From Cordylochernes scorpioides (Eukaryota > Arthropoda > Arachnida > Pseudoscorpiones > Chernetidae), in NCBI GenBank assembly GCA_030710605.1, contig CP092880.1, forward strand, positions 27,619,727 through 27,683,726: a stretch of 64,000 nt of DNA, written 5' to 3'. The translations under genes and the position numbers were made by a program. The notes below the pieces were generated by a model. The model did no database searches. It saw only the letters and a list, made by a program, of their open reading frames with translations, and had not been told where the DNA came from. Within the stretch, counting starts at the first letter, position 1; each line of letters begins with the position of its first letter. Below, piece after piece: positions 2,391-33,783 of the stretch.

Positions 2391-3351
2391 ATATATAGTC
2401 ACGACCGTCATGGGCGGGTCGGCCGGTTCTGTCACGGATGCGCGCGCATCATCATTATGATCATTATCATAATGAAAATTATATTTAAAAAAAAAGAAAA
2501 ACATTTTAAAATTAAAAACTTTATTTTAAAAATATATATATATTTTAAAATAACAGAATATTTTAATTTTCTATAAATTTCATAGATATATTTCATCCAA
2601 AAAAAAAATAATTTTGATAACTTGATTACTAATTGTTTACTTTGATTACTAATTACCCATATTCTTCTGCTTTTACTTAATATTACCTATTTACTAAAAT
2701 AATCATTGTATGCAAAAAAACATGCCTCCTAAGAAATATAACTCTGAAGAGGAAAGAAAGGCCGCAGCTGCCGCAAAAAGGCAAAATGCAAGGCAACAAG
2801 AAACAGCTGATCAACGCGCAGAACGACTCCAACGAGATTCTGAAGCTAAACGTCTAAAACTAGATAATGAAACAGCAGAACAACGTGCTGCAAGACTTCT
2901 GCGTAAAGCTGAAACTTCTAGAAGGCGTATTGACAATGAAACAGCAGAACAACGTGCTGCAAGACTTCTGCGTAAAGCTGAAACTTCTAGACGTCGTATT
3001 GACAATGAAACAGCAGAACAACGTGCTGCAAGACTTCTGCGTAAAGCTGAAACTTCTAGAAGTCGTATTGAAAATGAAACAGAAGAACAAAGTGCTGCAA
3101 GACTTCTGCGTAAAGCTGAAACTTCTAGAAGTCGTATTGACAATGAAACAGCAGAACAACATGCTGAAAGACTTCTGCGTAAAGCTGAAACTTCTAGAAG
3201 TCGTATTGACAATGAAACAGCAGAACAACGTGCTGCAAGACTTCTGTGTAAAGCTGAAACTTCTAGAAGTCGTATTGACAATGAAACAGCAGAACAAAGT
3301 GCTGCAACACTTCTAATAATAATAATTATTATTATATTATTATTATTATTA
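2391..3351 (+). mobile_element. Helitron 5' portion with coding remnant
   Basis: The block starts with ATATATAGTCACGACCGTCA, a 5' end shared with copies at about 3,355, 3,880 and 4,034. It continues through CATCATCATTATGATCATTA and AT-rich DNA into the repeat-rich reading frame at 2,710. No 3' hairpin of its own is present, because a second Helitron begins inside its AATAAT-rich tract at about 3,352. It is probably the left part of an autonomous or once-autonomous copy, since the short copies lack the coding segment. Confidence 0.6.
2710..3318 (+). pseudogene. Truncated Helitron-type N-terminal coiled-coil repeat protein
   Basis: The frame starts at 2,710, or more likely at the in-frame ATG at 2,722 giving MPPKKYNSEEERKAAAAAK, and consists of a lysine-rich head followed by six to seven copies of a 23-residue unit built around NETAEQRAARLLRKAE. 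The unit is charged and helical, as in the N-terminal segments that precede Rep-helicase domains in arthropod Helitron proteins. The frame then runs into an AAT/ATT microsatellite and the start of another Helitron, so helitron-like and helicase domains are absent. At DNA level it is a 69-bp tandem repeat, and the other five frames across it are shadows. Confidence 0.6.
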
Positions 3352-3874
3352 TCTATATATATATAGTCACGACCGTCATGGGCCGGTTCTGTCACGGATG
3401 CGCGCGCACAGGGAGGTCACGTGCTCGCCGGCAGCCAACGGGCGCGCGCCGCCGGTATTACGTCATAGATTATAAACACAAGGTAATAAGGCCAAATAAA
3501 AAAATAATGTGTGATAAGGCACAATTTGGATTATCTACTTATATAATTGCCTTATTCTCTCTGTGTGAAGTTCACGGATAGATTTTGGTCAGAATGGATA
3601 AAATAAAAAAAGTGTCAAGGGATGGGAATCGAACCCACGACCTTCCGCTTACCGGACAGATGCCATGACCACTAGGCTACCCTGGACATATTTTTCCGTT
3701 CACATTTTTATTTTTATATTTTCAAGACACACACAGTTTGGGGCGGGACGTTTCACAAGAGAGACATCCACGGCGCCAATTTATAATTGTAACGAATAGT
3801 ATTTTAATTAAAACATTTTAAAAATATATAAGCACTCGGGTAAAACCCGGGCGTTGCCCGGGCCATTTGTCTAG
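3352..3874 (+). mobile_element. Non-autonomous Helitron copy with a perfect 3' hairpin
   Basis: The left end lies in A|TCTATATATATATAG and is followed by the conserved CACGACCGTCATGGGCCGG. The right end has a perfect hairpin CCCGGGC-GTT-GCCCGGG (3,846-3,862), eight spacer bases, then CTAG followed by T (3,871-3,875). A 5' TC, a 3' hairpin about 10 nt from CTRR, insertion between A and T and no target duplication are the Helitron signature. The body carries a GC-rich head and a tRNA-like segment at 3,615-3,685. It encodes no protein. Confidence 0.8.
3615..3685 (-). repeat. tRNA-Thr-like SINE head inside Helitron
   Basis: On the minus strand this reads as a tRNA-like sequence with an A box (TAGCCTAGTGG) and a B box (GGTTCGATTCC). 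Folding by eye gives an anticodon stem TCTGT/GCGGA with a 7-nt loop CCGGTAA, hence anticodon GGT (threonine), but the invariant U33 is C. It is repeated at 4,284-4,355 in a sister Helitron, so it is cargo of the element and not a cellular tRNA gene. Confidence 0.65.
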
Positions 3875-4033: not shown

Positions 4034-4544
4034 ATATATAGTCACGACCGTCATGGGCCGGTTATATCACGGATGCGCACGCACAGGGAGGTCACGTGCT
4101 CGCCGGCAGCCAACGGGCGCGCGCCGCCGGCATTACGTCATAGATTATAAAATAAAAAAAATAGTGTGTGATAAGGCACAATTTGGATTATCTACTTATA
4201 TAATTGCCTTATTCTGTCTGTGTGAATTTCACTGTGTGAAGTTCACGGATAGATTTTGATCAGAACAGATAAAATAAAAAAATTTCAAGGGATGGGAATC
4301 GAACCCACGACCTTCCGCTTACCAGGCAGATGCCATGACCACTAGGCTACCCTGTACATATTTTTCCGTTCACATTTTTATTTTTATATTTTCAAGACAC
4401 ACACAGTTTGGGGCGGGACGTTTCACAAAAGAGAGATCCACGGCGCCAATTTATAATTGTAACGAATAATATTTTAATTAAAACATTTTTAAAATATATA
4501 CGCACTCGGGTAAAACCCGGGCGTTGCCCGGGCCATTCGTCTAG
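4034..4544 (+). mobile_element. Non-autonomous Helitron, second full copy
   Basis: It is a close sister of the copy at 3,352-3,874, with the same head, the same tRNA-like segment (4,284-4,355, minus strand) and the same terminal hairpin (4,516-4,532) followed by CTAG at 4,541-4,544 and T. Copia coding sequence resumes immediately afterwards, so this end is the right-hand boundary of the Helitron cluster inside the copia gene. Confidence 0.8.
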
Positions 4545-19725: not shown

Positions 19726-19860
19726 GTTGTTGTTGCTAATTTCTCAAGTCGTTTAAACAATCAACATTAGGTCCCATTGTCTCAGCTTTTCTATTATAGT
19801 CTTGGGGTTTTCCAGGAGGTCTTTTTTGGAGAAGGAAAGAGGGGTGCTGTTGGTCTGAAG
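19726..19860 (-). repeat. LINE-like 3' tail with ACA repeats (split)
   Basis: On the minus strand this ends ...GAGAAATTAGCAACAACAAC, a 3' trinucleotide tail like the one at 53,522-53,537. An open reading GKPQDYNRKAETMG can be followed upstream. The sequence continues at 22,256-22,318 on the other side of the KH-bearing element. I infer a short 5'-truncated non-LTR insertion on the minus strand. Confidence 0.45.
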
Positions 19861-20032
19861 GGGTTTCTCTGGAGGGGTTTGGGATGGTCGGCGATTCCTT
19901 CTTGAGGGCATCTTGATTACTAATTGTCACTGAGCTGTCACTTAAAAAACGGCTATAATTAACCGAATGTCGACTGCGCCATGTTCTACCGAGTTAGGGT
20001 AAAGGTTCGAGCTGCAGTGAGAACTATAAATT
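19861..20032 (-). repeat. Inverted arm of snap-back palindrome (left)
   Basis: This is the reverse complement of 20,036-20,207 with very few differences, centred on TATAAATT-ATT-AATTTATA (20,025-20,043). It carries an inverted copy of the LTR end, primer-binding site, leader and the first 17 gag codons. Confidence 0.85.
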
Positions 20033-20086
20033 ATTAATTTATAGTTCTCACTGCAGCTCGAACCTTTACCCTAACTCGGTAGAACA
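20025..20086 (+). repeat. 5' LTR stub
   Basis: TATAAATTATTAATTTATAG through CTAACTCGGTAGAACA is identical to the last 62 bp of the 3' LTR (22,194-22,255). The other 249 bp of the 5' LTR are missing. Confidence 0.8.
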
Positions 20087-20105
20087 TGGCGCAGTCGACA
20101 TTCGG
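20087..20105 (+). promoter_or_regulatory. Primer-binding site
   Basis: TGGCGCAGTCGACATTCGG starts directly after the LTR end (...GAACA) with the obligatory TGG of a tRNA-primed site. The tRNA is not identified. Confidence 0.7.
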
Positions 20106-20156
20106 TTAATTATAGCCGTTTTTTAAGTGACAGCTCAGTGACAATTAGTAATCAAG

Positions 20157-20534
20157 ATGCCCTCAAGAAGGAATCGCCGACCATCCCAAACCCCTTCAGA
20201 GAACCCTGCCTCGCCGACCAGCACCGACATCCTCAGGTCCATAGCCGCACTGTTGCAGCAGATGGCTACTCGGAATCCGACACCGACTGTCCCATTAGGA
20301 GCTCCTCCTCACCACGCCACAAAAATCATCCAGCTTCCTAAACTGGCTTCCCCGGAGGAGTTAACGATGTCTTGTTTCCGCGATTGGAAACAACGTTGGA
20401 ACGACTACGTGGACGCCCAACAAGTAGCCACCTTCCCGCTATCCACACAGCAAGTGACTTTGCGTGCCGCCCTCCATTCCGAATGGACCATCCTTTGGCA
20501 ATCAGGCCGCCTTCATCCGTATCCGGATCCGTGA
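20157..20534 (+). pseudogene. gag: Gag N-terminal part, frame-broken
   Basis: The frame starts at ATG 20,157 with MPSRRNRRPSQTPSENPASP and runs through TDILRSIAALLQQMA, PKLASPEEL, CFRDWKQRWNDYVDAQQVA and [12 protein letters not shown], the N-terminal gag segment of a Gypsy element. It changes frame at about 20,510, where the second frame takes over with [18 protein letters not shown]. Gags of this kind normally have tens of residues between these two segments, so an internal deletion with loss of frame is inferred. Programmed shifting is unlikely because no slippery site is evident. Confidence 0.7.
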
Positions 20535-22053
20535 CAGGTTAATATGTGGCCTGTTTGATAAAGACCTCCAACGAAAAGTACTGGCGGAGCAGTACAATTC
20601 CGACCTCTCCCTGGACCGAGTCCTCTCAATTTGCATCGCACATGAGAGTGCTACCGCCGTGGGCGCGTCTCTTTCACCCTCCCCAACCACCTCCCCCGAA
20701 GCCTTCATTGCAACCAGACGTGCACCATCAACCTACAAGCATCAACAAGCCAGCTCGTCTGAAACCTCACCTAAGGCCAACCGTTTCTTTCAGAAACCCT
20801 ATGATCCTAACGACCCCTGCTCCGGATGTGGGGCTAACCCAAGACACCGCCGTGACCAGTGCCCAGCAAAAGACATAGAATGTAACAAATGCGGCATCAC
20901 CGGGCATTACGGAAGGGTTTGCCGACAACTGAAACGGAAACCCACAACCAAACCTAATATCCCGCCACCCGCAACCAGAAACAATCAGTCCCAACCAGGA
21001 CCCTCAAACACAGTTGTTGCAGCTGGAGTACGCAACGAACTCATAACCATCCCGACCGATATCAACCATAAGTTACACCAAATCCGTTGGCTGGCGGACC
21101 CGGGGTCAGATCTGGATCTAATCCCAGAATCAGAATTCCTGTTACTGGATGAGCAGACCCGATCAGCACTCAACCCGAAGAACGTCCCTTGCGTAGGAGC
21201 CAACGGCATCAGCTTAAGTCCTTGTGGATCGTTCGTCGCGGCACTGCATCTCAACGGGAAAACATACAGTACTACCGTTGGAGTCTGCAAGCACCTGAAC
21301 GCCCCTCTCTTGTGCAAGAGCGGATGCAAAGCCTTAGGACTTCTGCCGGATAACTGGCCCCATTCAATGATCGTCAATGCCATAACCAAAAAAGGCTCAT
21401 CACAAGTCACTATACCAAATGATCTCGCCGGTGCCATCATTGGGAAAGGTGGTCAACGCATCAGGAAGATCCGGCGCGAGTCTGGTGCGGGGATCACCAT
21501 AGATGAGTCTCAACCTGGTAGCAACGAACGGGTCATCACCATCTCTGGCACGCCCCAGCAGATCCAGATGGCCCAGTACCTCTTGCAGCAAAATGTAAGA
21601 GAACATTCCTTTCGGAAGCGATACAATCGCAACGCCAAGCCACTCTCACATTTGGAAGTGGGAGCAATAGTCCTTGTCCAGGATCACCGCACAAAATATT
21701 GGAACCTCCTTGCTGAGGTTCTCGAACAACTTCCACGCGGTCGCAGCTACCTCATCCGGACCGACGCCGGACGCCTTCTTCGCCGTAATCGCAGATTCTT
21801 ACGACCTTTCGTGCCTCCACCGTACACCACCCCACCCAACTCAGCTCAACATCAGCAGACCTTATCCCCTCGAACCCGAGAACCGAACCCGCGTTATAGC
21901 AACTACGTTGGATCGGTCCCAAGTCCCAATCTCCAGGGGGGGCATGAGAAAAGAGGCAGCCAGCGGGCGACGCTGGCATCCTGGGACGCTGGCTGGCCAG
22001 CCGGCCTGCGCGCGCACCGGGGGCTGCGCGCGCACTTTTCGAACACCGCCTGA
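20510..22053 (+). CDS. Fused gag C-terminus - protease - KH domain - integrase tail
   Basis: One uninterrupted frame (open from 20,464, homologous from about 20,510, TGA ending at 22,053) carries four blocks. First, a gag end with two zinc knuckles, [15 protein letters not shown] and [14 protein letters not shown] (20,819-20,934). Second, a retropepsin-like domain around [15 protein letters not shown], where the active-site triplet is Asp-Pro-Gly rather than DTG/DSG (21,096-21,104). Third, a KH domain at 21,397-21,603 with [19 protein letters not shown] (GxxG loop GKGG) and [17 protein letters not shown], the third-KH type of hnRNP K. Fourth, an integrase C-terminal domain ([12 protein letters not shown]...[10 protein letters not shown], to about 21,810), then a Pro-rich tail reading into the LTR. 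The polymerase and integrase core are absent. Confidence 0.85.
21397..21603 (+). other. Captured KH domain (hnRNP K KH3 type)
   Basis: Sixty-nine codons without intron encode a complete type I KH fold: first strand SSQVTIPN, helix, GKGG loop in [17 protein letters not shown], strands with [19 protein letters not shown], and a C-terminal helix. Known KH3 domains of hnRNP K bind C-rich single-stranded nucleic acid. The proteins flanking it are retroelement-derived on both sides, in the same frame. Confidence 0.85.
21933..21944 (+). promoter_or_regulatory. Polypurine tract
   Basis: CCAGGGGGGGCA directly precedes TGAGAAAAGAGG, the proposed start of the 3' LTR. A G-rich purine run adjoining TG is the usual site of plus-strand priming. 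Confidence 0.6.
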
Positions 22054-22255
22054 TATCGCCGGCTTGTTTACCGCCCGTCGCTACAACCTACGGCGGTTCC
22101 TTCTATTATATAATACTCTAGGCGCTGGTGGAGTAAAAACTGTACTCCACCTGCCTCTTATAATTGTATGTAATCTTTGGACACTTATTAAAATATAAAT
22201 TATTAATTTATAGTTCTCACTGCAGCTCGAACCTTTACCCTAACTCGGTAGAACA
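21945..22255 (+). repeat. 3' LTR of the KH-bearing element
   Basis: It is 311 bp from TGAGAAAAGAGGCAGCC to CTCGGTAGAACA. It contains GGCTGGCCAGCCGGCC and GCGCGCGCAC motifs, a TATA-like TTATATAATACTC (22,107) and the palindrome TATAAATTATTAATTTATA (22,194-22,212). The main frame ends inside it at 22,053. Confidence 0.75.
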
Positions 22256-22405
22256 GGTGCTGTTGGTCTGAAGACCTGGAAGTACCACTCAGTGTGACTT
22301 TGCTTATTTTGGTCTCCTGACATGTGGAGTACTTAGGATAAAAGCAGTTGCCAACTTCTACCCACCATGATTATCATGGCCTGTTCCACGTGTACTAGGG
22401 ATAAT
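22256..22405. repeat. LINE-tail continuation and SINE D right part
   Basis: After the 18-bp direct repeat, 22,274-22,318 continues the minus-strand LINE-like sequence. SINE D resumes at 22,319 and ends near 22,405 (GCCTGTTCCACGTGTACTAG). Confidence 0.5.
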
Positions 22406-24044: not shown

Positions 24045-26760
24045 TCAGCAGGAGACCTGCGCCTCCAGTCTACGAGCTCGCGACCGCGTAATAGGGCCAG
24101 GGATATCCAGGTCTCCTGGTTTGGGGACCTCCTCCTGGGCCAAGGGGGGTTGCCTCCCTTCCGCTGGAACTTCTTCCTTTTGAGGACTTGATAAGTCGTC
24201 TTCCATGTCCTCCTCCAGGTGGTCCTCCCGCTTCTCTGGATCTAAATAGGTCTTCATCCTGCAGATGTGAACTATGTCCTTTGTTTTACGACGACCATGC
24301 TGGTCTCCGAATGTCTCCACTTCATATGTCACATCGGATATTTTTCTTGTTACTTTATATGGGCCGAAATAACGTCGCATTAGTTTTTCAGACAAACCCA
24401 CCTTGCGCACAGGGATATAGATCCAAACGAGAACTCCGGGCTGATAGATTATGTTTCTGTGATGGGCGTCGTAACGGAGTTTATTTCCTCCCTGGGACCT
24501 CATAGTGTGAATGCGTGCCAGCTGTCGCGCTTCTTCGGCCCTTGATCCTAGAGTCTGGATGAAGTCATCTTCATCCTCTGAAGGAAATTTGGGGAATAGC
24601 AAGTCTAGTGGGGTTTCCGCCTCACGCCCGTGCACAAGGTAGAATGGACTAAACCCCGTGGACTCTTGCTTCGCCGTGTTGTATGCGAACGTCACGAATG
24701 GGAGAATCTCATCCCAATCTTTCTGGTTGACGTCCACATACATGGACAGCATGTCTGCTATTGTCTTATTCAACCTTTCAGTGAGTCCATTGGTCTGAGG
24801 GTGGTAGGCGGTTGTTGTCCGATGAGTTATTCTGCAGTGTTTGTTCAGATCACGAATCATTGAAGATGTAAAATTTCGTCCTCGGTCTGTGATAACTTCT
24901 CTCGGCGCACCGTGCTTCAGAATTACATCTTTAATGAAGAATTTCGCTACTTCCACTGATTCACTTGTCGGTAGAGCTTTCGTGATCGCAAACTTGGTGA
25001 GGTAATCCGTACAGACAATGATCCATCGATTCCCGCACATAGATTTTGGAAACCTTCCAAGGAGATCCATTCCCACTTTTTCGAAGGCGGCTATAGGCAC
25101 AGGTATCGGCTGCAAAAGTCCTGGAGGGAGTTGGGGCTGGCGTTTGCGTCGCTGACAATCTGGACAGTGAGCCACATACTTCCTAATATTTCTATACATT
25201 ACGGGCCAGTAGAATTTTTTTCTTATTCGATCATATGTCTTAGTAAATCCAAGATATCCTGAAGTGGGAGAATCATGTAAGTTTCTCAGTATTTCAGGCC
25301 TCAAGTGGCGGGGGACCACCAGAAACCATTCCCTTCCCATTGGATCGTAATTTTTTTTATGGAGAGTATCGTTTATTTTTATAAAGGACTTGTTAGATGT
25401 TTCCTGTTGGATTTTGTCGGCTATCTTCGTGAGGTCCGAGTCTTTCATTTGTTCCCGTCCAAAATTCTGTAAGGCAACTATGCAAGGAATATCTTCTTCT
25501 ATATCTTCACTACAATTTAGGGGACTTCTTGATAAACAGTCAGCGTCCTGATGTTTTCTTCCGCTCTTGTGCACAACAGTAACATCAAACTCCTGCAGCC
25601 GAAGAGCCCATCTTGCTAACCTCCCACATGGGTCCTTGAGGTTGGTCAGCCAGCACAAGGAGTGATGGTCAGTTACGATAGTGAATGGACGTCCAAAAAC
25701 ATACGGCCGGAATTTGCCAATAGCCCAAATAATAGCAAGACATTCTATCTCAGTCGTCGAATAATTTCTTTCCGCCTTATTGAGCGTTCTCGATGCATAG
25801 GCAATGGCTCTTTCCTTTTCCTTTTGAATTTGCGCTAAAACTGCTCCTATTCCATAGTTGCTCGCATCAGTATGTATTTCTGTTGGGGATGAATGATCAA
25901 AATGTCCCAAGACAGGCTCAGAAATTAGGGCTGACTTGAGAGCTTCAAATGCGTGCCGCTCTTCTATGTTCCAACTAAACACTGAATCTTTCTTTAAAAG
26001 AGCGTTAAATGGTTGGGCTATATGGGCATAATTGGGTATGAAACGGCGGTAGTAGGAAGATAGCCCTAGGAAACTTCTAACTTCTTTTAGCGACTTTGGT
26101 CTGGGGAAGTCACGGACTGCTCTAATTTTTTCTGGATCGAGACATATTCCATCTCCACTCACCTCATGTCCAAGAACTGTTATAGTTTTCGCACCAAACC
26201 TGCATTTCCCCGAGTTGAGGCACAAGCCATCCTTCCTCAAACAGCCTAATACCAGCTGAAGGCGTCTCAGATGTTCCTCAAAATCATCGGAAAAAACGAC
26301 TATATCATTAAGGTGACAGAGACAGATTGTCCACTTAAGACCCTTCAAGAGGCCGTCCAACATTCGTTCGAATGTAGCTGGAGCGTTGTATAACCCAAAT
26401 GGCATCACTTTGAACTCATACAATCCATCTGGGGTTATGAATGCAGTCTTCTCACGGTCCGCTTCCTCCACGTCGATCTGCCAGTATCCAGATTGGAGAT
26501 CCATAGAGGAATAAAATCGTGCTCCCTGTAGACAGTCCAAAGTGTCGTCGATCCTTTGGAGCGGGTAAACATCCTTTTTTGTTATCTTATTAAGGCGGCG
26601 GTAATCGACGCAGAATCTCCAGCTGCCATCTTTTTTCCTGACCAAAACGACCGGTGAGGCCCATGGGCTCGCAGAGGGCTGAATAATACCAATTTCTTCC
26701 ATTTTATTTACCTCCTCTTGAATAATTTGACGTTCCGCTGGTCTACTCGGTACGGTCGTT
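24045..26760 (-). pseudogene. pol: Gypsy pol: reverse transcriptase, RNase H, integrase (RT active site lost)
   Basis: A long open frame encodes RT (MEEIGIIQPSASPWASPVVL, RFCVDYRRLN, MPFGLYNAPATFERM), RNase H (EIHTDASNYGIGAVLAQ, TTEIECLAIIWAIGKF), the zinc domain (H...H with CPDCQRRK), the integrase core (VGMDLLGRFP, VITDRGRNFTSS, NGLTERLNKT) and a C-terminal domain (VWIYIPVRKVGLSEK, RRYFGPYKV). The polymerase motif YLDD is changed to HLND (about 26,305), replacing the first catalytic Asp with Asn, so the RT should be inactive. A frameshift near 26,705 separates it from the protease. It is the downstream half of the element whose gag is at 32,400-33,783. Confidence 0.9.
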
Positions 26761-27202
26761 GTTTAGTGGGAAGGTGTATCAGCTGACAAGATGCGGGCTC
26801 TATTCTGTATTCCCGTTCCGCGTAGAGAGGTGAGTTGTTCTTGGGTGTGTCCTCGACTAGGAATTCCTCTAAAAAAAAGTGTATCTTCTGCAGAATCAAT
26901 TACCGCCCTGGATAACTTCAAAAAGTCCAATCCGAGGATCACATCGTGACTACAGTCCTCCAGAACAATAAATTCGAAATTTTCCTGCAGACCATTTAAG
27001 TCCAATTTTAAAGAGCAGCGTCCTTTCGGTTTTATAATTTTACCGTTGGCCACTCTTAAGCTCACGTCAGTTTCGGCAAACATTATTTTCTTCAATTTGA
27101 ATCTGAACCTCTCGGACACGACAGAATAAGAAGCCCCAGAATCAACAAGGGCACTGGTTATATTTCCTTCTATTTTAATATTTATATAATTTCCTTTCAT
27201 AT
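26761..27202 (-). pseudogene. pol: Gypsy protease segment
   Basis: The minus strand from 27,198 encodes a retropepsin: INIKIEGNITSALVDSGASY (catalytic DSG, about 27,150), VANGKIIKPKGRC and HDVILGLDFLK (about 26,930). After a frameshift near 26,890 the linker EYRIEPASCQLIHLPTK leads to RT. The domain is cut at its N-terminal side by the plus-strand Gypsy. The frame continues beyond that insertion at 32,400 (PPSSTTVDMKGN across the joint). Confidence 0.85.
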
Positions 27203-27538
27203 TGTTACATCATGATTAATGGCGTATTTATTATATTATTTTTAATATATTTGAAATTTAAATTATATATTTATTTATTTTTATATTCTATGATATTTAA
27301 TTAAAACAGATTATTTTTAGATTATCATCATTTGTATTTAGGTACACTGTGACTTCACTGCTCTCTTTGATGTGAGAAAATAAATAAATGATTCTGGTGG
27401 CTACATAAAGTAGACTTATCTCATTATTCCCTTTTATAAATTTGTAGGATGGTTGAAACACGCTCTGGTAAGATGCAAGACCCAGCACCGGAGAGAATCA
27501 AGGCTGAAGAGTCTGCCAAGCCGCAACCTGGTGCAACA
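27203..27538 (+). repeat. 5' LTR of the intact Gypsy
   Basis: It runs from TGTTACATCATG to GGTGCAACA. The gag ATG (27,449) lies inside it, 90 bp before its end, so the U5 part is protein coding. AT-rich promoter-like DNA (TTTTTATATTCTATG) lies near 27,285. AATAAATAAATG occurs at 27,379. Confidence 0.9.
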
Positions 27539-28612
27539 ATTGGTAGAGATGCTAGTTCCGACCCAGTTGTCCTGAATCCCAACATCGACATCCCCAAGTA
27601 TGATGGAACAGAAGACCCTCGCCCATGGATTGAATCTCTTGAAGAAATTGGCTTCCTGTACCATTGGGCAGACTACATTATCTCCCGTTATGCTGCCATG
27701 AATATGATTGGTAGCGCCAAAACCTGGCTGAACCTACACAAAGTAAGTTTCACCAGCTGGGAAAATTTCAAGAGCCGCCTAATTGAGGATTTTGCCTCAG
27801 ACGCCAACAAAGAAGAAATGAGGATGAGATTAAACAGGATACAACAGTGGAATGAACCTGCAATCAGGTTCGCAGAGGATATCCTTGTACTGTGCAACAA
27901 GGTCGACCCCCAAATGGAAGAAGAGACTAAAATAAACTGGGTTATTGGAGGGTTAAAGAAAGAATACTCTTTTGCCCTTCACCTAAACCCTCCTAAAAAT
28001 ACCAATGAACTTCTAGAAATTTGTAAAAAGCTGGATTTGTTCGAAAAGAATTACCAAGAACGTGCAGAAAAATCAAAAGCTCTTTATAATGGACCACGCT
28101 CTCCTCGTCCCCATCATCAAGAGCAATGGAAGAATGCTACGTCGTTCAGAAGACCATATCAGAACACCTCCAAGCCCCAGGCCCCCGCTCCGAGGTACTA
28201 CCAGAACACCTCCAAGCCCCAGGCCCCCACTCCGAGGTATTACCAGAACAAGCCTCTGCCCCAGGTATCTGCCCCTAGACGATCTTACACTCCCAATCCT
28301 GAGCCAAAACCGGTCTACCCAAGTAAAACATACAATAAGAATCCAAATTCAAATAGGAATAGGACAGAAGACGGGAGACCAATATGTTTCAAGTGTAACA
28401 AGCCAGGACATGTAGCGCGGTATTGCAGAGTCAGGTTTGTAAGAATTGTGGAAGAGGACCCCATAGTTACACAAGACAAGGTCGAAGAAGAAATCCGAAT
28501 GGATAATGGAACTCAGAAGTCGAGACCTCTGCTCTACTCTGACGTAAGTAATAGCCCGTACTCGAGTATCCCTACAAGGAATAGATATGCTGCATTAGAA
28601 GATTTAAACTAA
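27449..28612 (+). CDS. gag: Gypsy Gag
   Basis: The frame encodes 387 residues. It starts with MVETRSGKMQDPAPERIKAE in the LTR, reads through the primer-binding site as IGRDASSDP, and then shows a capsid-like region (IPKYDGTEDPRPWIESLEEI, WENFKSRLIEDFAS, AIRFAEDILVLCNKV). A linker follows with a repeated SKPQAPAPRYYQNT unit (28,159-28,280), then one zinc knuckle CFKCNKPGHVARYC (28,386-28,427). It ends ALEDLN, TAA at 28,610. No upstream in-frame ATG is needed. The last codons form a -1 frameshift heptamer that leads into pol. Gag would package the element RNA. Confidence 0.9.
   Translation: MVETRSGKMQDPAPERIKAEESAKPQPGATIGRDASSDPVVLNPNIDIPKYDGTEDPRPWIESLEEIGFLYHWADYIISRYAAMNMIGSAKTWLNLHKVSFTSWENFKSRLIEDFASDANKEEMRMRLNRIQQWNEPAIRFAEDILVLCNKVDPQMEEETKINWVIGGLKKEYSFALHLNPPKNTNELLEICKKLDLFEKNYQERAEKSKALYNGPRSPRPHHQEQWKNATSFRRPYQNTSKPQAPAPRYYQNTSKPQAPTPRYYQNKPLPQVSAPRRSYTPNPEPKPVYPSKTYNKNPNSNRNRTEDGRPICFKCNKPGHVARYCRVRFVRIVEEDPIVTQDKVEEEIRMDNGTQKSRPLLYSDVSNSPYSSIPTRNRYAALEDLN
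27541..27556 (+). promoter_or_regulatory. Primer-binding site inside the gag frame
   Basis: TGGTAGAGATGCTAGT starts two bases after the LTR end. It resembles the sites after the LTRs at 7,523 (TGGTGGAGATGCTGGG) and before 33,749 (minus strand TGGTGGAGACGCTGGA), so the three elements probably use the same tRNA, with two mismatches here. Confidence 0.65.
28603..28609 (+). promoter_or_regulatory. -1 ribosomal frameshift heptamer TTTAAAC
   Basis: In the gag phase this reads T TTA AAC followed at once by the TAA stop. UUUAAAC is among the most efficient eukaryotic -1 slippery heptamers. After the slip, the -1 frame is open from CTA (28,609) straight into protease. I see no strong downstream stem or pseudoknot by eye. 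The adjacent stop codon may itself cause pausing. Confidence 0.75.
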
Positions 28613-31600
28613 ACATCGCGCCTGAGTCCGTCAATCAAAGCAAGTCGACCATAAATGGAATTAAAAAGTTGGACCCCAAATATAAAATGAACAATAACGT
28701 GGATAGAATCGGTATCTGCGAAGCTTTGATTGATACAGGCGCCGATCTTTCAGTGGTCGACCTTAGTACAGCTCTTAACACAGGTCTTGAAATAATAAAT
28801 CCTGATAAAATGTGCTCCGGACCCGATGGCAAAGAATTAGATATCGTAGGAAATATTATTTTAAATATAAAATTTGATGACAAAACAATTACACATCAAT
28901 TTGTGATAATGAGAACACATTTGCGAATATTTATACTTGGACGTGATTTTCTTAAGAAAATGAACGCAAAAATTGATTGTCAGCGTGAAATAATCAAATA
29001 TGACTTGACAGAAAATCGTGACGTAATCAAATATCAACAGAAGAAAATAAAAAGTGCAAAGGATGCCATTATACCAGAACTTTCTATTAAATTGATTAAT
29101 GCATTTGTAGAAGCAGAGGATGGCGAATACATCATCGAGGAGAACCATAAAATGTTTCAAACAAATGGACTTCGACTAGCGAGAAGCTTAATAAATGTTG
29201 TGAATAAGAAAACATATATCTGTATAACAAACCCTTACCCTCGACCATTAAAAATATTAAAAAACCAAACATTGTGCTTTGGAAGCCAGCCAGCCGAAGT
29301 GAATCTTATGGAAGAAAGTGAACAAAAAGAGCATGAAGAACCCCAATTTCAGATAAACGAAAATTTAGCATATACGGAAAAGGAGCAATTGAAACAAGTT
29401 TTGGAAAGGTACGAGGATTTGTTTTCGTCGGGATTAGGAAGATCCAACTTAGCGAAACATCGGATCGATACAGAAGGCGCGAAACCGATCAAACACAAGC
29501 CGTATAGGGTGAGCGCGAAAGAGCGAGAAATCATAAAAGAACAAATTGATGAAATGCTCAGAGACGGCATAATTAGACCATCCTCGAGTCCATGGTCCTT
29601 CCCTGTAATCTTGGTCAAGAAGCGAGATGGTAAGTACAGATTTTGCGTTGACTACAGAATATTGAATGATGTAACAGTGAAGGATGTTTACCCAATTCAC
29701 AGAATTGATGAAGTATTGGATACACTTCAAGGATCCAAATACCTTTCAGCAATTGACCTTAAATCAGGATATTGGCAAGTAGAGGTTGAGGAGAAAGATA
29801 AAGAAAAGACAGCCTTCACTACAGCACATGGCCTATATGAGTTCAACGTAATGCCCTTTGGTCTATGCAATGCCCCTGCTACATTTGAGAGGAACATGGA
29901 AAATATGCTTGGTAATCTTAGATGGCAAATTTGCTTATGTTATCTAGATGACGTAATCATTTATAGCTCGGATTTTTCAACACATCTCAAAAGAATAGAA
30001 GCTGTTTTAAAATGTTTTCGCGAGGCTAATTTAAAATTGAACAACAAAAAATGCCAATTTGCTTTCGAAGAACTGGAGATTCTTGGCCATATAACTAATC
30101 AACATGGTATAAAACCAGCGGAGCATAATATCAAGGCTATTAGAGATTTTCCTCGGCCCAAAAAGATAAAAGAAGTTCAATCATTTTTAGGAATGTGCTC
30201 ATATTATAGAAAATGTATCAAAGGTTTTTCAAAAATTGCCGATCAATTAACCAGTCTTATAAAAAAGAATGTACCTTTTACCTGGACAGAAAATCAAGAG
30301 AAAGCATTTCAAACCCTTAAAGTAGCATTGATAAATCCTCCAATCTTAGGGCACTTTGACCCGAATGCAATTACTTACATTCATACTGACGCATCTAACA
30401 TCGGCCTGGGTGCAACATTAGTCCAAAAGTTCGGCGATAAAGAAAAAGTTATCTCATATTTAAGTCGAACACTGAGCAAACCTGAGCAAAATTATTCGAC
30501 TACCGAAAAAGAATGTCTAGCTGTTGTGTGGTCAATGTCCAAGTTACGACCCTACCTATATGGAAAGCACTTCAAAATCGTAACTGATCATCACGCACTA
30601 TGCTGGCTTAAGAATCTGAAAGATCCGACCGGCCGATTAGCACGATGGGCACTGAAGATTCAGGAATATAATTTCGAAATCATACATAAATCGGGTAAAA
30701 AACATCTGGACGCTGATGGTCTATCTAGAGGACCCTTACCTGAAAACGAATGGGACGAAGATTATGAAAGACTATTTCTGAATCAAATAATAGACGAAAA
30801 GGATGATTTTATTGAGAATATTAAGGAGAACCTTAGTGGAAACAAGCGTTCAATTACACAGAACTTCAAAAAAGAAAATGGGTGTCTCTACAAGAAAAAT
30901 CCAAATCCTGAAGGTAGGGCATGGTTGCTGGTAGTGCCAAAGAAGAGAAGGAAGGAAGTCATGAGTGAATACCACAACCATATGCTGAATGGCCATCTGG
31001 GCGTCGCCAGAACCACTTACCGATTGAAGAATGAATACTATTGGCCTTCCATGTTGAAAGATGTTTCAGAATTTGTAAAGACGTGCCATCTTTGCCAAAG
31101 TCAGAAAGGTTCAAATCACTTGCCTTCTGGACTTCTACAACCTATTCCCCCAGCTAACTACCCTTTTGAAAGAATTGGAATTGACTTTGTTGGCCCCTTG
31201 CCATCAACGAAAAGAAGAAGGAAGTGGATAATTGTGTTGACTGATTATTATACCAAGTATGCTGAAACAAAGGCAGTATCAGAAGCAACCGTGAAAGAAG
31301 TCTCTACATTTTTAATCGAACATATTATTTTACGTCACGGGGCCCCAAGATTTCTTATTAGCGATAGAGGTTCACAATTCACTAGCAATTTGATGAAGGA
31401 GGTAATGAAAATGTGCAAAGTGAAACACTGCTTCACAACGAGCTACCACCCCCAGACTAACGGACTAACGGAACGGCTAAATAGAACTTTAATCAATATG
31501 ATCAGCATGTATGTGAACACAGACCAAAAGAACTGGGATGAAATCCTCCCTTTTATCACCCACGCGTATAATACCACGATTCAAGAAACCACAGGCTACT

Positions 31601-32076
31601 CTCCATTTTTCCTGTTGTTTGGAAGGGAACCCATGTCCCTCTTAGACGACGAGAATATCCCAACGGACAGTAACATGGACGATTACGGCGAATATATAGA
31701 AAACTACTTAGATAAAATAGCAAGGACGAGACAGGTAGTCATTAACAACACAGAGAAGACTCAGGAAAGAATGAAAAGAAACTATGACAAAAAACACAAT
31801 GAGAAAATCTATGAAGCAGGACATTTAGTGGCAGTTTGGACACCAGTCAGGAAAATCGGAAAATGCGAAAAACTATTGAGAAAATATTTTGGCCCATATC
31901 GAATATTAAAGAAGCTGTCTAACGTAAATTACTTAATTGAGCCGAAAGATAATCCTGGCCAAGACCCATTGATTGTCCATGTCTCAAGACTCAAACCCTA
32001 TTTTGAGAGAATTGATGAGGTAACTCACGAGGACGTGACGACCTCTGGAGAGGGGGAAGTGTTACATCATGATTAA
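28609..32076 (+). CDS. pol: Gypsy Pol (protease, RT, RNase H, integrase)
   Basis: The frame is open from the frameshift site to TAA at 32,076, about 1,155 residues, in the -1 phase relative to gag. Domains in order: protease (ALIDTGADLSVVD, near 28,720), RT (FCVDYRILND, PFGLCNAPATFER, CYLDDVIIYS near 29,940), RNase H (YIHTDASNIGLGATL near 30,380, KHLDADGLSR at its end), integrase zinc domain (HNHMLNGHLG...CHLCQ), integrase core (IGIDFVGPLP, LISDRGSQFTSN near 31,355, NGLTERLNRT near 31,465) and a C-terminal domain (AVWTPVRKIGKCEKLLRK, KYFGPYRILK). All catalytic Asp/Glu are present. The first in-frame ATG is far inside protease, which supports translation by frameshift. Confidence 0.92.
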   Translation, partial: LNIAPESVNQSKSTINGIKKLDPKYKMNNNVDRIGICEALIDTGADLSVVDLSTALNTGLEIINPDKMCSGPDGKELDIVGNIILNIKFDDKTITHQFVIMRTHLRIFILGRDFLKKMNAKIDCQREIIKYDLTENRDVIKYQQKKIKSAKDAIIPELSIKLINAFVEAEDGEYIIEENHKMFQTNGLRLARSLINVVNKKTYICITNPYPRPLKILKNQTLCFGSQPAEVNLMEESEQKEHEEPQFQINENLAYTEKEQLKQVLERYEDLFSSGLGRSNLAKHRIDTEGAKPIKHKPYRVSAKEREIIKEQIDEMLRDGIIRPSSSPWSFPVILVKKRDGKYRFCVDYRILNDVTVKDVYPIHRIDEVLDTLQGSKYLSAIDLKSGYWQVEVEEKDKEKTAFTTAHGLYEFNVMPFGLCNAPATFERNMENMLGNLRWQICLCYLDDVIIYSSDFSTHLKRIEAVLKCFREANLKLNNKKCQFAFEELEILGHITNQHGIKPAEHNIKAIRDFPRPKKIKEVQSFLGMCSYYRKCIKGFSKIADQLTSLIKKNVPFTWTENQEKAFQTLKVALINPPILGHFDPNAITYIHTDASNIGLGATLVQKFGDKEKVISYLSRTLSKPEQNYSTTEKECLAVVWSMSKLRPYLYGKHFKIVTDHHALCWLKNLKDPTGRLARWALKIQEYNFEIIHKSGKKHLDADGLSRGPLPENEWDEDYERLFLNQIIDEKDDFIENIKENLSGNKRSITQNFKKENGCLYKKNPNPEGRAWLLVVPKKRRKEVMSEYHNHMLNGHLGVARTTYRLKNEYYWPSMLKDVSEFVKTCHLCQSQKGSNHLPSGLLQPIPPANYPFERIGIDFVGPLPSTKRRRKWIIVLTDYYTKYAETKAVSEATVKEVSTFLIEHIILRHGAPRFLISDRGSQFTSNLMKEVMKMCKVKHCFTTSYHPQTNGLTERLNRTLINMISMYVNTDQKNWDEILPFITHAYNTTIQETTGYSPFFLLFGREPMSLLDDENIPTDSNMDDYGEYIENYLDKIARTRQVVINNTEKTQERMKRNYDKKHNEKIYEAGHLVAVWTPVRKIGKCEKLLRKYFGPYRILKKLSNVNYLIEPKDNPGQDPLIVHVSRLKPYFERIDEVTHEDVTTSGEGEVLHHD
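32048..32059 (+). promoter_or_regulatory. Polypurine tract
   Basis: GAGAGGGGGAAG lies immediately before the TG of the 3' LTR at 32,060, inside the last codons of pol. Confidence 0.8.
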
Positions 32077-32395
32077 TGGCGTATTTATTATATTATTTTT
32101 AATATATTTGAAATTTAAATTATATATTTATTTATTTTTATATTCTATGATATTTATTTAAAACATATTATTTTTAGATTATCATCATTTGTATTTAGGT
32201 ACACTGTGACTTCACTGCTCTCTTTGATGTGAGAAAATAAATAAATGATTCTGGTGGCTACATAAAGTAGACTTATCTCATTATTCCCTTTTATAAATTT
32301 GTAGGATGGTTGAAACACGCTCTGGTAAGATGCAAGACCCAGCACCGGAGAGAATCAAGGCTGAAGAGTCTGCCAAGCCGCAACCTGGTGCAACA
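32060..32395 (+). repeat. 3' LTR of the intact Gypsy
   Basis: It is the same 336 bp as the 5' LTR apart from two substitutions. Because gag starts within the LTR, this copy also provides an ATG (32,306) and about 30 codons that then read into flanking DNA and stop near 32,453. Confidence 0.9.
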
Positions 32396-32399
32396 ATAT

Positions 32400-33783
32400 C
32401 CACTGTAGTCGATGAGGGAGGGTTTCCAAATTTTGCGGCCCCACCTCCAAAATAGGTCGCAACCTCTAGTTTTCCTGGCGGGAAAGGCGAGGTGACCGAC
32501 TGGACCCTCTAATAGGCGACGAATGTTTTCCGTTTCGGCCAGGGTATGGGGAAGGGCTTCGGTAACGTCAAAAATTATCTCTTGGCTCGTCGTCATTGAG
32601 CGCCGGGAATTTGTAACGGGGTCCATAGAAGAACATTGATTCTTGCCTCCTTTGGGAATATCTCTTTTTCTCTTTCGTCATTCTGTCTCCTTCTGTCACG
32701 GCAGTAACGGGAGACATGGCCAGGGCGTCCGCAATGGAAGCAAATTGGTCTTCCCTCAGTGGTCCGCCATTCATTTGTGTCCAATCTTTCTCCCTGTTTC
32801 GGGTACCGAGCTCTGGGACGGGGAGTTTGGGGTGCGGCCGTCTCTCTTCTAGCGATTGGTGACGGCGTATAAGTTTAATATTGAGGGGAGCCTCTGGAAG
32901 GATTTGATTTTGGAGCGAGGGTTTTATCAATTTCTTCCCTCACCATATCTTCAATGGTGGCGATTCTTGGTTCTTCACGACGAGCGGCCAAGGCCCGTTG
33001 TACCTCCTCGCGGACAATTTGTCTAATCATGGATGACAAATCAGTATTATCATCGCAGACATCAAGGGATGCTACATTGGGCAAGCGTTCGTACTTGGCG
33101 GGGGTCACACGCCGACGATGAAGCGCTTCAATGCGGCGGCACTCAGACACAAATTGATCCGTATTGTTTAAGTCTCTTGGAAGAAGCGCCTGATAAAGTT
33201 CTTCCACTATTCCTTTCATGAGGTGGGAGATTTTATCCCCCTCGCTCATTTGGAGATCTACCTCTTTGCAGAGTCGTAGGACGTCTTGTATATAGAACTC
33301 GGTGCTTTCACCCTTTAGCTGAGCCCGGATTTTAAGTTTTTTCTCGGCAAGCAGCCGCAGACTCTCACTTTTCCCAAATACACTCTCCAATTGAGTAGTA
33401 AACTCTTCCCAATTCTGGATGGTCTCCTCATTATTCTCAAACCATTTGAGGGCAGTTCCATTCAGGTAAAAGTAGACATTGGCAAGACAGAGGGTTTCGT
33501 CCCAATGATTATGCTTTGCCACACGTTTGTAACCTTTTAACCAGGTAAGGGGATCCTCACCATCCTCTCCGGAGAACATGGAAGGATTCCTTGGTAGGTG
33601 CTGAACAAAATAATTGCCCACCTGGGTAGCATTCTCTATATTCACGGTCATCTCCTTGAGCTCTACACTATCTTTTTGTTTAACAGTTTCAGTCCTTCTT
33701 TTATGTCTGAAGGGATATCGGTCTTGACGATCCAGCGTCTCCACCAGTTGTAGCGTAGCAGAAAGGTAGAGTCGGTGATCCAC
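32400..33783 (-). pseudogene. gag: Gag of the older minus-strand Gypsy
   Basis: From ATG 33,783 the frame reads MDHRLYLSATLQ inside the LTR, then LVETLD across the primer-binding site, then gag: NPSMFSGEDGEDPLTWLKGY, WEEFTTQLESVFGKSESL, ESTEFYIQDVLRLCKEVD, and a coiled REEVQRALAARREEP region to 32,875. After a frameshift the zinc knuckle CFHCGRPGHVSRYC is read at about 32,700-32,740. The frame continues with further shifts to the insertion site at 32,399 and resumes as protease at 27,202. It resembles the gag of the younger element in order and length but is clearly a different family. Confidence 0.85.
33731..33746 (-). promoter_or_regulatory. Primer-binding site of minus-strand Gypsy
   Basis: The minus strand reads TGGTGGAGACGCTGGA two bases after the LTR end (GCTACA-AC-TGG). 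It is translated as part of gag. Confidence 0.7.

What the first reader, a model, noticed from the sequence alone, without database searches (positions are those of the whole stretch)
20510..22053. Gypsy-like element with an in-frame hnRNP K-type KH domain replacing its polymerase and integrase core
Seen: a single frame runs gag zinc knuckles, retropepsin, a complete KH domain (GKGG loop; [17 protein letters not shown] end helix) and then an integrase C-terminal domain, a polypurine tract and an LTR. Known: KH3 of hnRNP K binds C-rich single-stranded RNA/DNA, and retroelement Gags rely on their own nucleic-acid binding. Inference: a retroelement lost RT-RNase H-integrase core and captured a host RNA-binding domain as an intronless cDNA, giving a Gag-PR-KH-IN tail protein that could bind element or host RNA. 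I know of no described Gypsy family with this layout.
Basis: partly seen in the sequence, partly recalled or inferred. Interest (0 to 1): 0.93.

Follow-up and report, generated by a model that had tools for sequence, protein, structure and literature searches.

The report
Retroelement family carrying hnRNP K domain
In a pseudoscorpion genome, a family of defective jumping genes has swapped its copying enzymes for a piece of a host RNA-binding protein; the capture recurs in several annotated copies, but the copy in this window is broken and nothing yet shows that the piece does anything.

Summary
An open frame (20464-22053) runs Gag end, zinc knuckles, retropepsin fold, KH domain, integrase C-terminus, then polypurine tract and 3' LTR. 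The KH is hnRNP K KH3: 84.7% identical to scorpion hnRNP K residues 379-450 of 451, so it ends one residue before the host C-terminus. It is not a one-off. Six annotated Cordylochernes scorpioides proteins carry it with the same 5' joint ([13 protein letters not shown], 6 of 6) and three of six show the same 3' joint. A KH-less relative, P0225, has RT, RNase H and integrase between those points. Simplest reading: two template switches into hnRNP K mRNA, then mobilisation in trans. Corrections: the family keeps about 110 residues of linker and RT N-terminus before the KH; this copy lost them, lost a piece of gag that breaks the frame, and lost most of its 5' LTR. The first ATG in the reported frame is 21367. 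The protease reads DPG, not DT/SG. Selection on the KH was not detected, with little power. New variant of a known process; function unproven.

The parts
19843..19860 (.). 18-bp direct repeat, left, flanking the insertion
   Evidence: exact repeat at 22256-22273; these are the only two occurrences in the window
19861..20033 (-). inverted copy of LTR end, PBS and first gag codons, meeting the main copy at a palindrome
   Evidence: 19867-20033 compared without gaps: 167 bases, 1 mismatch; inverted repeat I1
20022..20086 (+). remnant of 5' LTR (last 65 bp)
   Evidence: 64 of 65 identical to 22191-22255
20087..20097 (+). primer-binding-site-like TGGCGCAGTCG right after the LTR end (tRNA-Ser assignment recalled, not tested)
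   Evidence: sequence
20157..20534 (+). Gag start ORF (MPSRR...), cut short by a deletion that shifts the frame
   Evidence: 97.5% identical to P0228 residues 1-120
20818..20922 (+). two Gag zinc knuckles (motif recalled)
   Evidence: sequence; present in related copies
21073..21366 (+). retropepsin domain, active-site triplet DPG instead of DT/SG
21388..21402 (+). KKGSS, last residues from the RT reading frame before the capture joint
   Evidence: shared with P0225 RT PKKGSSEPRVTVD
21403..21618 (+). captured hnRNP K KH3 plus C-terminal tail
   Evidence: 84.7% over 72 aa to Centruroides hnRNP K 379-450 of 451; Pfam; PDB; model
21619..21810 (+). integrase C-terminal domain
   Evidence: 90% identical to P0225 downstream of rve; group of strands in the model
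21935..21944 (+). polypurine tract
21945..22255 (+). 3' LTR, 311 bp, TG...CA
   Evidence: end defined by repeat D2; start by PPT and TG
22256..22273 (.). 18-bp direct repeat, right

Best explanation
This is one decayed member of a non-autonomous Ty3/Gypsy-type family of Cordylochernes scorpioides. An ancestor's RNA was copied in a particle that also held hnRNP K mRNA. Reverse transcriptase switched from the integrase-C-terminus region to the hnRNP K message one codon before its end, copied back through KH3, and switched into the RT region at KKGSS, staying in frame at both joints. About 725 codons (RT core, RNase H, integrase) were replaced by 72. The chimera kept LTR, PBS, PPT, Gag and protease fold and was spread in trans by KH-less relatives such as P0225. 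Shown: the joints in the window DNA, their recurrence in gene models, the domains. Inferred: template switching, trans-mobilisation, and that the KH is mainly a passenger.
For: KH identity. Same 5' joint in 6 of 6 KH-bearing proteins and same 3' joint in 3 of 6 (one with Q for R next to it), both also in the window. P0225 keeps the uninterrupted region: PKKGSS ends at residue 114, RYNRNAKP starts at 840, with RT, RNase H, H2C2 and rve between. P0228 and P0229 run from the gag ATG into the KH and align over residues 1-618 with the springtail element P0231. Of seven KH segments three are identical and four differ by one private residue each; they group together on a tree (86/77, an open fork), as expected from one capture and later copying. 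Template switching between LTR elements and host mRNA is described in PMC5408686 and PMC9674220 (passages read).
Against: No DNA of other copies could be read, so their LTRs and target-site duplications were not seen; the copies are gene models. P0001 and P0004 share 72% identical upstream sequence over 264 aa, so some copies may be segmental duplicates. An ordinary hnRNP K of this species was not found, so microhomology and intron loss could not be checked. This insertion is flanked by an 18-bp repeat, longer than the few bases usual for this integrase class (recalled). Passenger status rests on few changes: KH 4 of 483 residues against 5 of 1325 elsewhere, p=0.26.
Confidence: 0.75

Rival explanations
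1. The KH is a working part: the fusion gives the particle protein a C-rich RNA/DNA-binding domain used to select RNA, aid translation, or compete with host hnRNP K, which in mouse stem cells is needed for silencing endogenous retroviruses and in human cells aids retroviral translation.
For: The GKGG loop is kept in the window and in the six proteins and the window KH is predicted to fold. Gag-to-KH frame open in the gene models P0228 and P0229. Element sense strand is C-rich, with more C motifs than the antisense (TCCC 15 against 5, CCC 53 against 23). hnRNP K acts on retroviral elements in mammals (PMC4303303 and PMC10954487, abstracts and outlines read).
Against: C-rich motifs are at or below the level of dinucleotide shuffles (TCCC 15 against mean 16.0; CCC 53 against 71.3). 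Three of the four private KH changes lie at residues mostly conserved in the hnRNP K rows (I52 134, T37 122, M61 113 of 135); the fourth, R29, was fixed by the row-picking pattern and says nothing. Copies look too young for openness to mean selection.
Confidence: 0.12
2. The family acts through RNA: captured hnRNP K sequence feeds piRNA or siRNA that targets host hnRNP K, as partial Masc retrocopies linked to LTR elements do in the diamondback moth.
For: A precedent exists (PMC9674220, passages read). The KH occurs in several gene models, and the window is rich in transposon sequence.
Against: No small-RNA data were available; KH and host hnRNP K DNA could not be compared.
Confidence: 0.08
3. 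Assembly or annotation artefact: chimeric join or gene-model exon shuffling.
For: The six proteins are gene models; three leave the KH at a donor-like GTAAGA (21595 in the window) into unrelated sequence.
Against: In the window both joints are contiguous DNA, and the same 5' joint recurs in models on contigs of five different lengths.
Confidence: 0.03
4. A host gene made from the element (domestication).
For: Three of the six models (P0004, P0226, P0228) are named HNRNPK in the public set.
Against: Several near-identical copies; broken frames in the window gag and in the P0004 integrase end; the names look automatic.
Confidence: 0.02

Closest known systems
LTR-mediated retroposition in metazoans (Tan et al. 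2016, as cited in PMC5408686 and PMC9674220; the paper itself is not held)
   Same: Chimeric LTR element plus part of a host mRNA, explained by template switching at short similarities.
   Different: Here the host piece sits in frame within the pol frame and the chimera occurs in several gene models with the same joint.
Maize Bs1 (PMC13317346, passages read)
   Same: LTR element that carries transduced pieces of host genes.
   Different: Plant element with pieces of an ATPase, a xylan endohydrolase and a glucanase gene; here an RNA-binding KH domain in an arachnid Gypsy-type element.
P0225 (same species) and springtail element P0231, K02A2.6-like Ty3/Gypsy
   Same: P0231: 48-51% identity to Gag-PR-RT N-terminus of P0227-P0229; P0225: 93-94% in the RT N-terminus of those copies and 90% in the window integrase end.
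   Different: They have RT, RNase H, H2C2 and rve and no KH.
hnRNP K KH3 (PDB 1zzi, 1zzj)
   Different: Single KH without KH1/KH2, fused to an integrase C-terminus, host stop removed.
Retroviral oncogene transduction (recalled)
   Same: Host coding piece replaces viral genes, helper needed.
   Different: No envelope stage or helper tested here.

Membership tests
Ty3/Gypsy LTR retrotransposon | LTRs with TG...CA, PBS, PPT | tested here: met
   3' LTR, PPT and PBS-like site found; 5' LTR reduced to 65 bp in this copy
Ty3/Gypsy LTR retrotransposon | PR-RT-RNase H-IN order in pol | tested here: met
   met in relatives: RT, RNase H, IN order by Pfam in P0231 and P0225, DTG motif before them in P0231; in the window only PR, an RT trace and the IN C-terminus remain
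Ty3/Gypsy LTR retrotransposon | catalytic RT and integrase | tested here: not met
   no RT or integrase Pfam hit in the window frame; so it is a non-autonomous derivative, not a complete member
Ty3/Gypsy LTR retrotransposon | short target-site duplication (recalled, 4-6 bp) | tested here: not met
   18-bp direct repeat instead; concerns this insertion only
Ty3/Gypsy LTR retrotransposon | retropepsin DT/SG motif | tested here: not met
   fold met but motif DPG in the window and 9 of 9 conspecific proteins checked; of 13 outside relatives the pattern was found in 8, all DT/SG, and not found in 5
hnRNP K KH3 | type I KH sequence and fold, best match to KH3 not KH1/2 | tested here: met
   Centruroides KH3 84.7% over 72 aa against 46.8% and 43.6% for shorter matches to its other KH domains
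hnRNP K KH3 | binding to C-rich single strands | not testable with these tools
   needs a binding assay
Host-mRNA transduction by an LTR element | host exonic sequence inside the element, no introns | tested here: inconclusive
   72 codons without intron, but the host gene structure was not available
Host-mRNA transduction by an LTR element | several copies sharing both joints | tested here: met
   5' joint 6 of 6, 3' joint 3 of 6 proteins, plus the window
Host-mRNA transduction by an LTR element | microhomology at switch points | not tested
   host hnRNP K DNA of this species not found; only a protein-level likeness at the joints is visible

The most novel reading that the evidence does not exclude
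A retroelement family has stolen the nucleic-acid-binding end of hnRNP K and uses it: a Gag-PR-RTn-KH-INc protein made by full-frame copies such as P0228/P0229 binds C-rich RNA or displaces host hnRNP K, helping a defective family spread on helpers or escape silencing.
Probability: 0.12. Interest if true: 0.75.

Novelty: new variant of a known kind. Interest (0 to 1): 0.5.

Why it matters
In the passages I read, host pieces captured by animal LTR elements appear as retrocopies. Here the captured piece is a compact nucleic-acid-binding domain, in frame at both ends, and the chimera recurs in several annotated copies. That makes a testable case of whether domain theft by a retroelement is noise or the start of a new function, and whether host hnRNP K is affected.

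Tried and rejected
Genome-wide copy search: the genome search with the KH segment was asked 18 times and never answered; copy number, LTR ages, flanks and dN/dS therefore could not be measured. A scan of viral contigs with KH plus integrase tail found no relative: 5 stretches matched a pattern, none was confirmed. Self-RNA binding by C-rich motif density: no enrichment over shuffles. Selection on the KH: 4 of 483 residues against 5 of 1325 elsewhere (p=0.26), or against 3 of 1130 in Gag knuckles plus PR (p=0.21). Rows dropped there: P0004 has no Gag-knuckle piece, and the integrase piece was counted only in the window, P0001 and P0226 (P0004 is out of frame, P0227-P0229 leave before it). The conservation table uses 135 rows picked by a pattern that itself fixes several residues. 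Ordinary hnRNP K of this species: not among the rows listed (best 120 of 331; 104; best 120 of 141); the conspecific rows named HNRNPK are element fusions. An empty insertion site elsewhere in the window: flanks match repeats separately but no match spans the join. The fold list for the KH-IN model shows KH matches (50 rows shown); that says nothing against the integrase tail. Gypsy clade assignment was not attempted. Literature: the eight searches listed no paper whose title or abstract start describes a KH-bearing LTR element; only listings were seen except for the five papers named with passages or outlines.

Full report

Which KH. By sequence the best solved match is hnRNP K KH3 (1.1e-25). 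Against the proteins fetched, the best are two scorpion hnRNP K proteins, 84.7% over 72 residues, covering residues 379-450 of 451 in Centruroides sculpturatus; the other KH domains of that protein match over shorter stretches at 46.8% and 43.6%. The captured piece thus ends one residue before the C-terminus of that protein and drops the host stop. A tree of 25 KH3 rows (18 hnRNP K rows that I chose, 7 element copies) groups the seven element copies with 86/77 support, an open fork; their closest relative is unresolved.

Not a one-off. Protein searches place the window in or very near Cordylochernes scorpioides (up to 99.5% identity over 198 residues to P0001). Six proteins annotated in that species carry the KH inside retroelement sequence: P0001, P0004, P0226, P0227, P0228, P0229, on contigs of five different lengths. 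In the rows listed, no row from another species shows a KH accession together with an RT or integrase accession; the lists are capped at 120. The 5' joint [13 protein letters not shown] is in 6 of 6, and KKGSS|QVT in the window; the 3' joint VREHSF(R/Q)K|RYNRN is in P0001, P0226 and, with Q, P0004, and in the window. The other three gene models leave the KH at YLLQQN, where the window DNA has a donor-like GTAAGA (21595), and go on into unrelated sequences, probably a gene-model effect. The six proteins keep residues before KKGSS that the window lacks, so the window is a seventh locus.

What was replaced. P0225, a KH-less relative from the same species, has RT (RVT_1 at 109-268), RNase H, H2C2 and rve domains; PKKGSS ends at its residue 114 and RYNRNAKP starts at 840. 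So about 725 residues, nearly all of the Pfam-defined RT included, were replaced by 72. P0228 and P0229 start with the same gag residues as the window and align over residues 1-618 with the springtail element P0231 (48% identity), entering the KH at 609: the family layout is Gag-PR-RT N-terminus-KH-integrase C-terminus, the last part seen in P0001 and P0226.

The window copy is broken. Its gag ATG frame (20157) ends at 20534 after a deletion; the reported frame has its first ATG at 21367, just before the KH. A second deletion removed the stretch before KKGSS, so PR abuts KH only here. The 5' LTR is reduced to its last 65 bp, and in place of the rest lies an inverted copy of LTR end, PBS and first gag codons (167 bases compared, 1 mismatch) meeting the main copy at a palindrome. 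The whole is flanked by an exact 18-bp repeat. A self-primed snap-back cDNA would give such an end; this is inference, as is the reading of the near-identical arms as a young insertion. P0004 also goes out of frame in the integrase C-terminus: its end matches the other frame listed at 21674-22198.

Protease. In 9 of 9 conspecific proteins with this region, and in the window, the triplet is DPG; among 13 relatives from other sources the search pattern was found in 8, all DT/SG, and missed in 5. KH-less conspecifics (P0002, P0003, P0230) have DPG too, so the change is not tied to the KH.

How it most likely works. Two template switches between element RNA and co-packaged hnRNP K mRNA, then spread in trans by KH-less relatives. 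Switching between LTR elements and host mRNA is described for animals and plants in the passages read (PMC5408686, PMC9674220, PMC13317346). The KH is most simply a passenger: private changes are 4 in 483 KH residues against 5 in 1325 elsewhere (p=0.26, little power), and C-rich motifs are not above dinucleotide shuffles, although the sense strand is C-rich and carries more of them than the antisense. Function remains open: the GKGG loop is kept, the window KH is predicted to fold, and hnRNP K takes part in silencing or translating retroviral elements in mammals (PMC4303303, PMC10954487; abstracts and outlines). A small-RNA route has a precedent in the moth Masc retrocopies (PMC9674220).

Limits. 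The other copies are known only as gene-model proteins. P0001 and P0004 share similar upstream sequence (72% over 264 aa) and may descend from one insertion. The genome search did not complete in 18 requests.

Noticed in passing
19843-20225 and 22256-22273: The 5' LTR is replaced by an inverted copy of LTR end, PBS and gag start meeting at a palindrome, and the whole insertion is flanked by an exact 18-bp repeat: looks like a self-primed snap-back cDNA inserted without the usual short duplication.
   Followed up: partly
21088-21108: Retropepsin active-site triplet is DPG in the window and in 9 of 9 conspecific proteins checked, against DT/SG in the 8 of 13 outside relatives where the pattern was found: possibly an inactive or altered protease in a whole lineage.
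   Followed up: partly
24045-33783: Nested Gypsy elements: a plus-strand Gag-Pol element (27449-32076) lies between the pol and protease frames (24045-27200) and the gag frame (32875-33783) of minus-strand sequence.
   Followed up: no
3612-3687 and 4284-4356: Two tRNA-Thr (ggt) genes predicted about 600 bp apart on the minus strand; could be tRNA-derived repeats.
   Followed up: no
2710-3366: Repetitive coding frame (units like RAARLLRKAETSRSRIDNETAEQ), with another long frame open on the opposite strand at 2811-3395.
   Followed up: no
proteins P0003 and P0230 (no window coordinates): Both conspecific gene models jump from ...PPTPVR to AECSAYLPS, skipping RT and RNase H at the same points; either a shared deletion or a shared predicted intron.
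   Followed up: no
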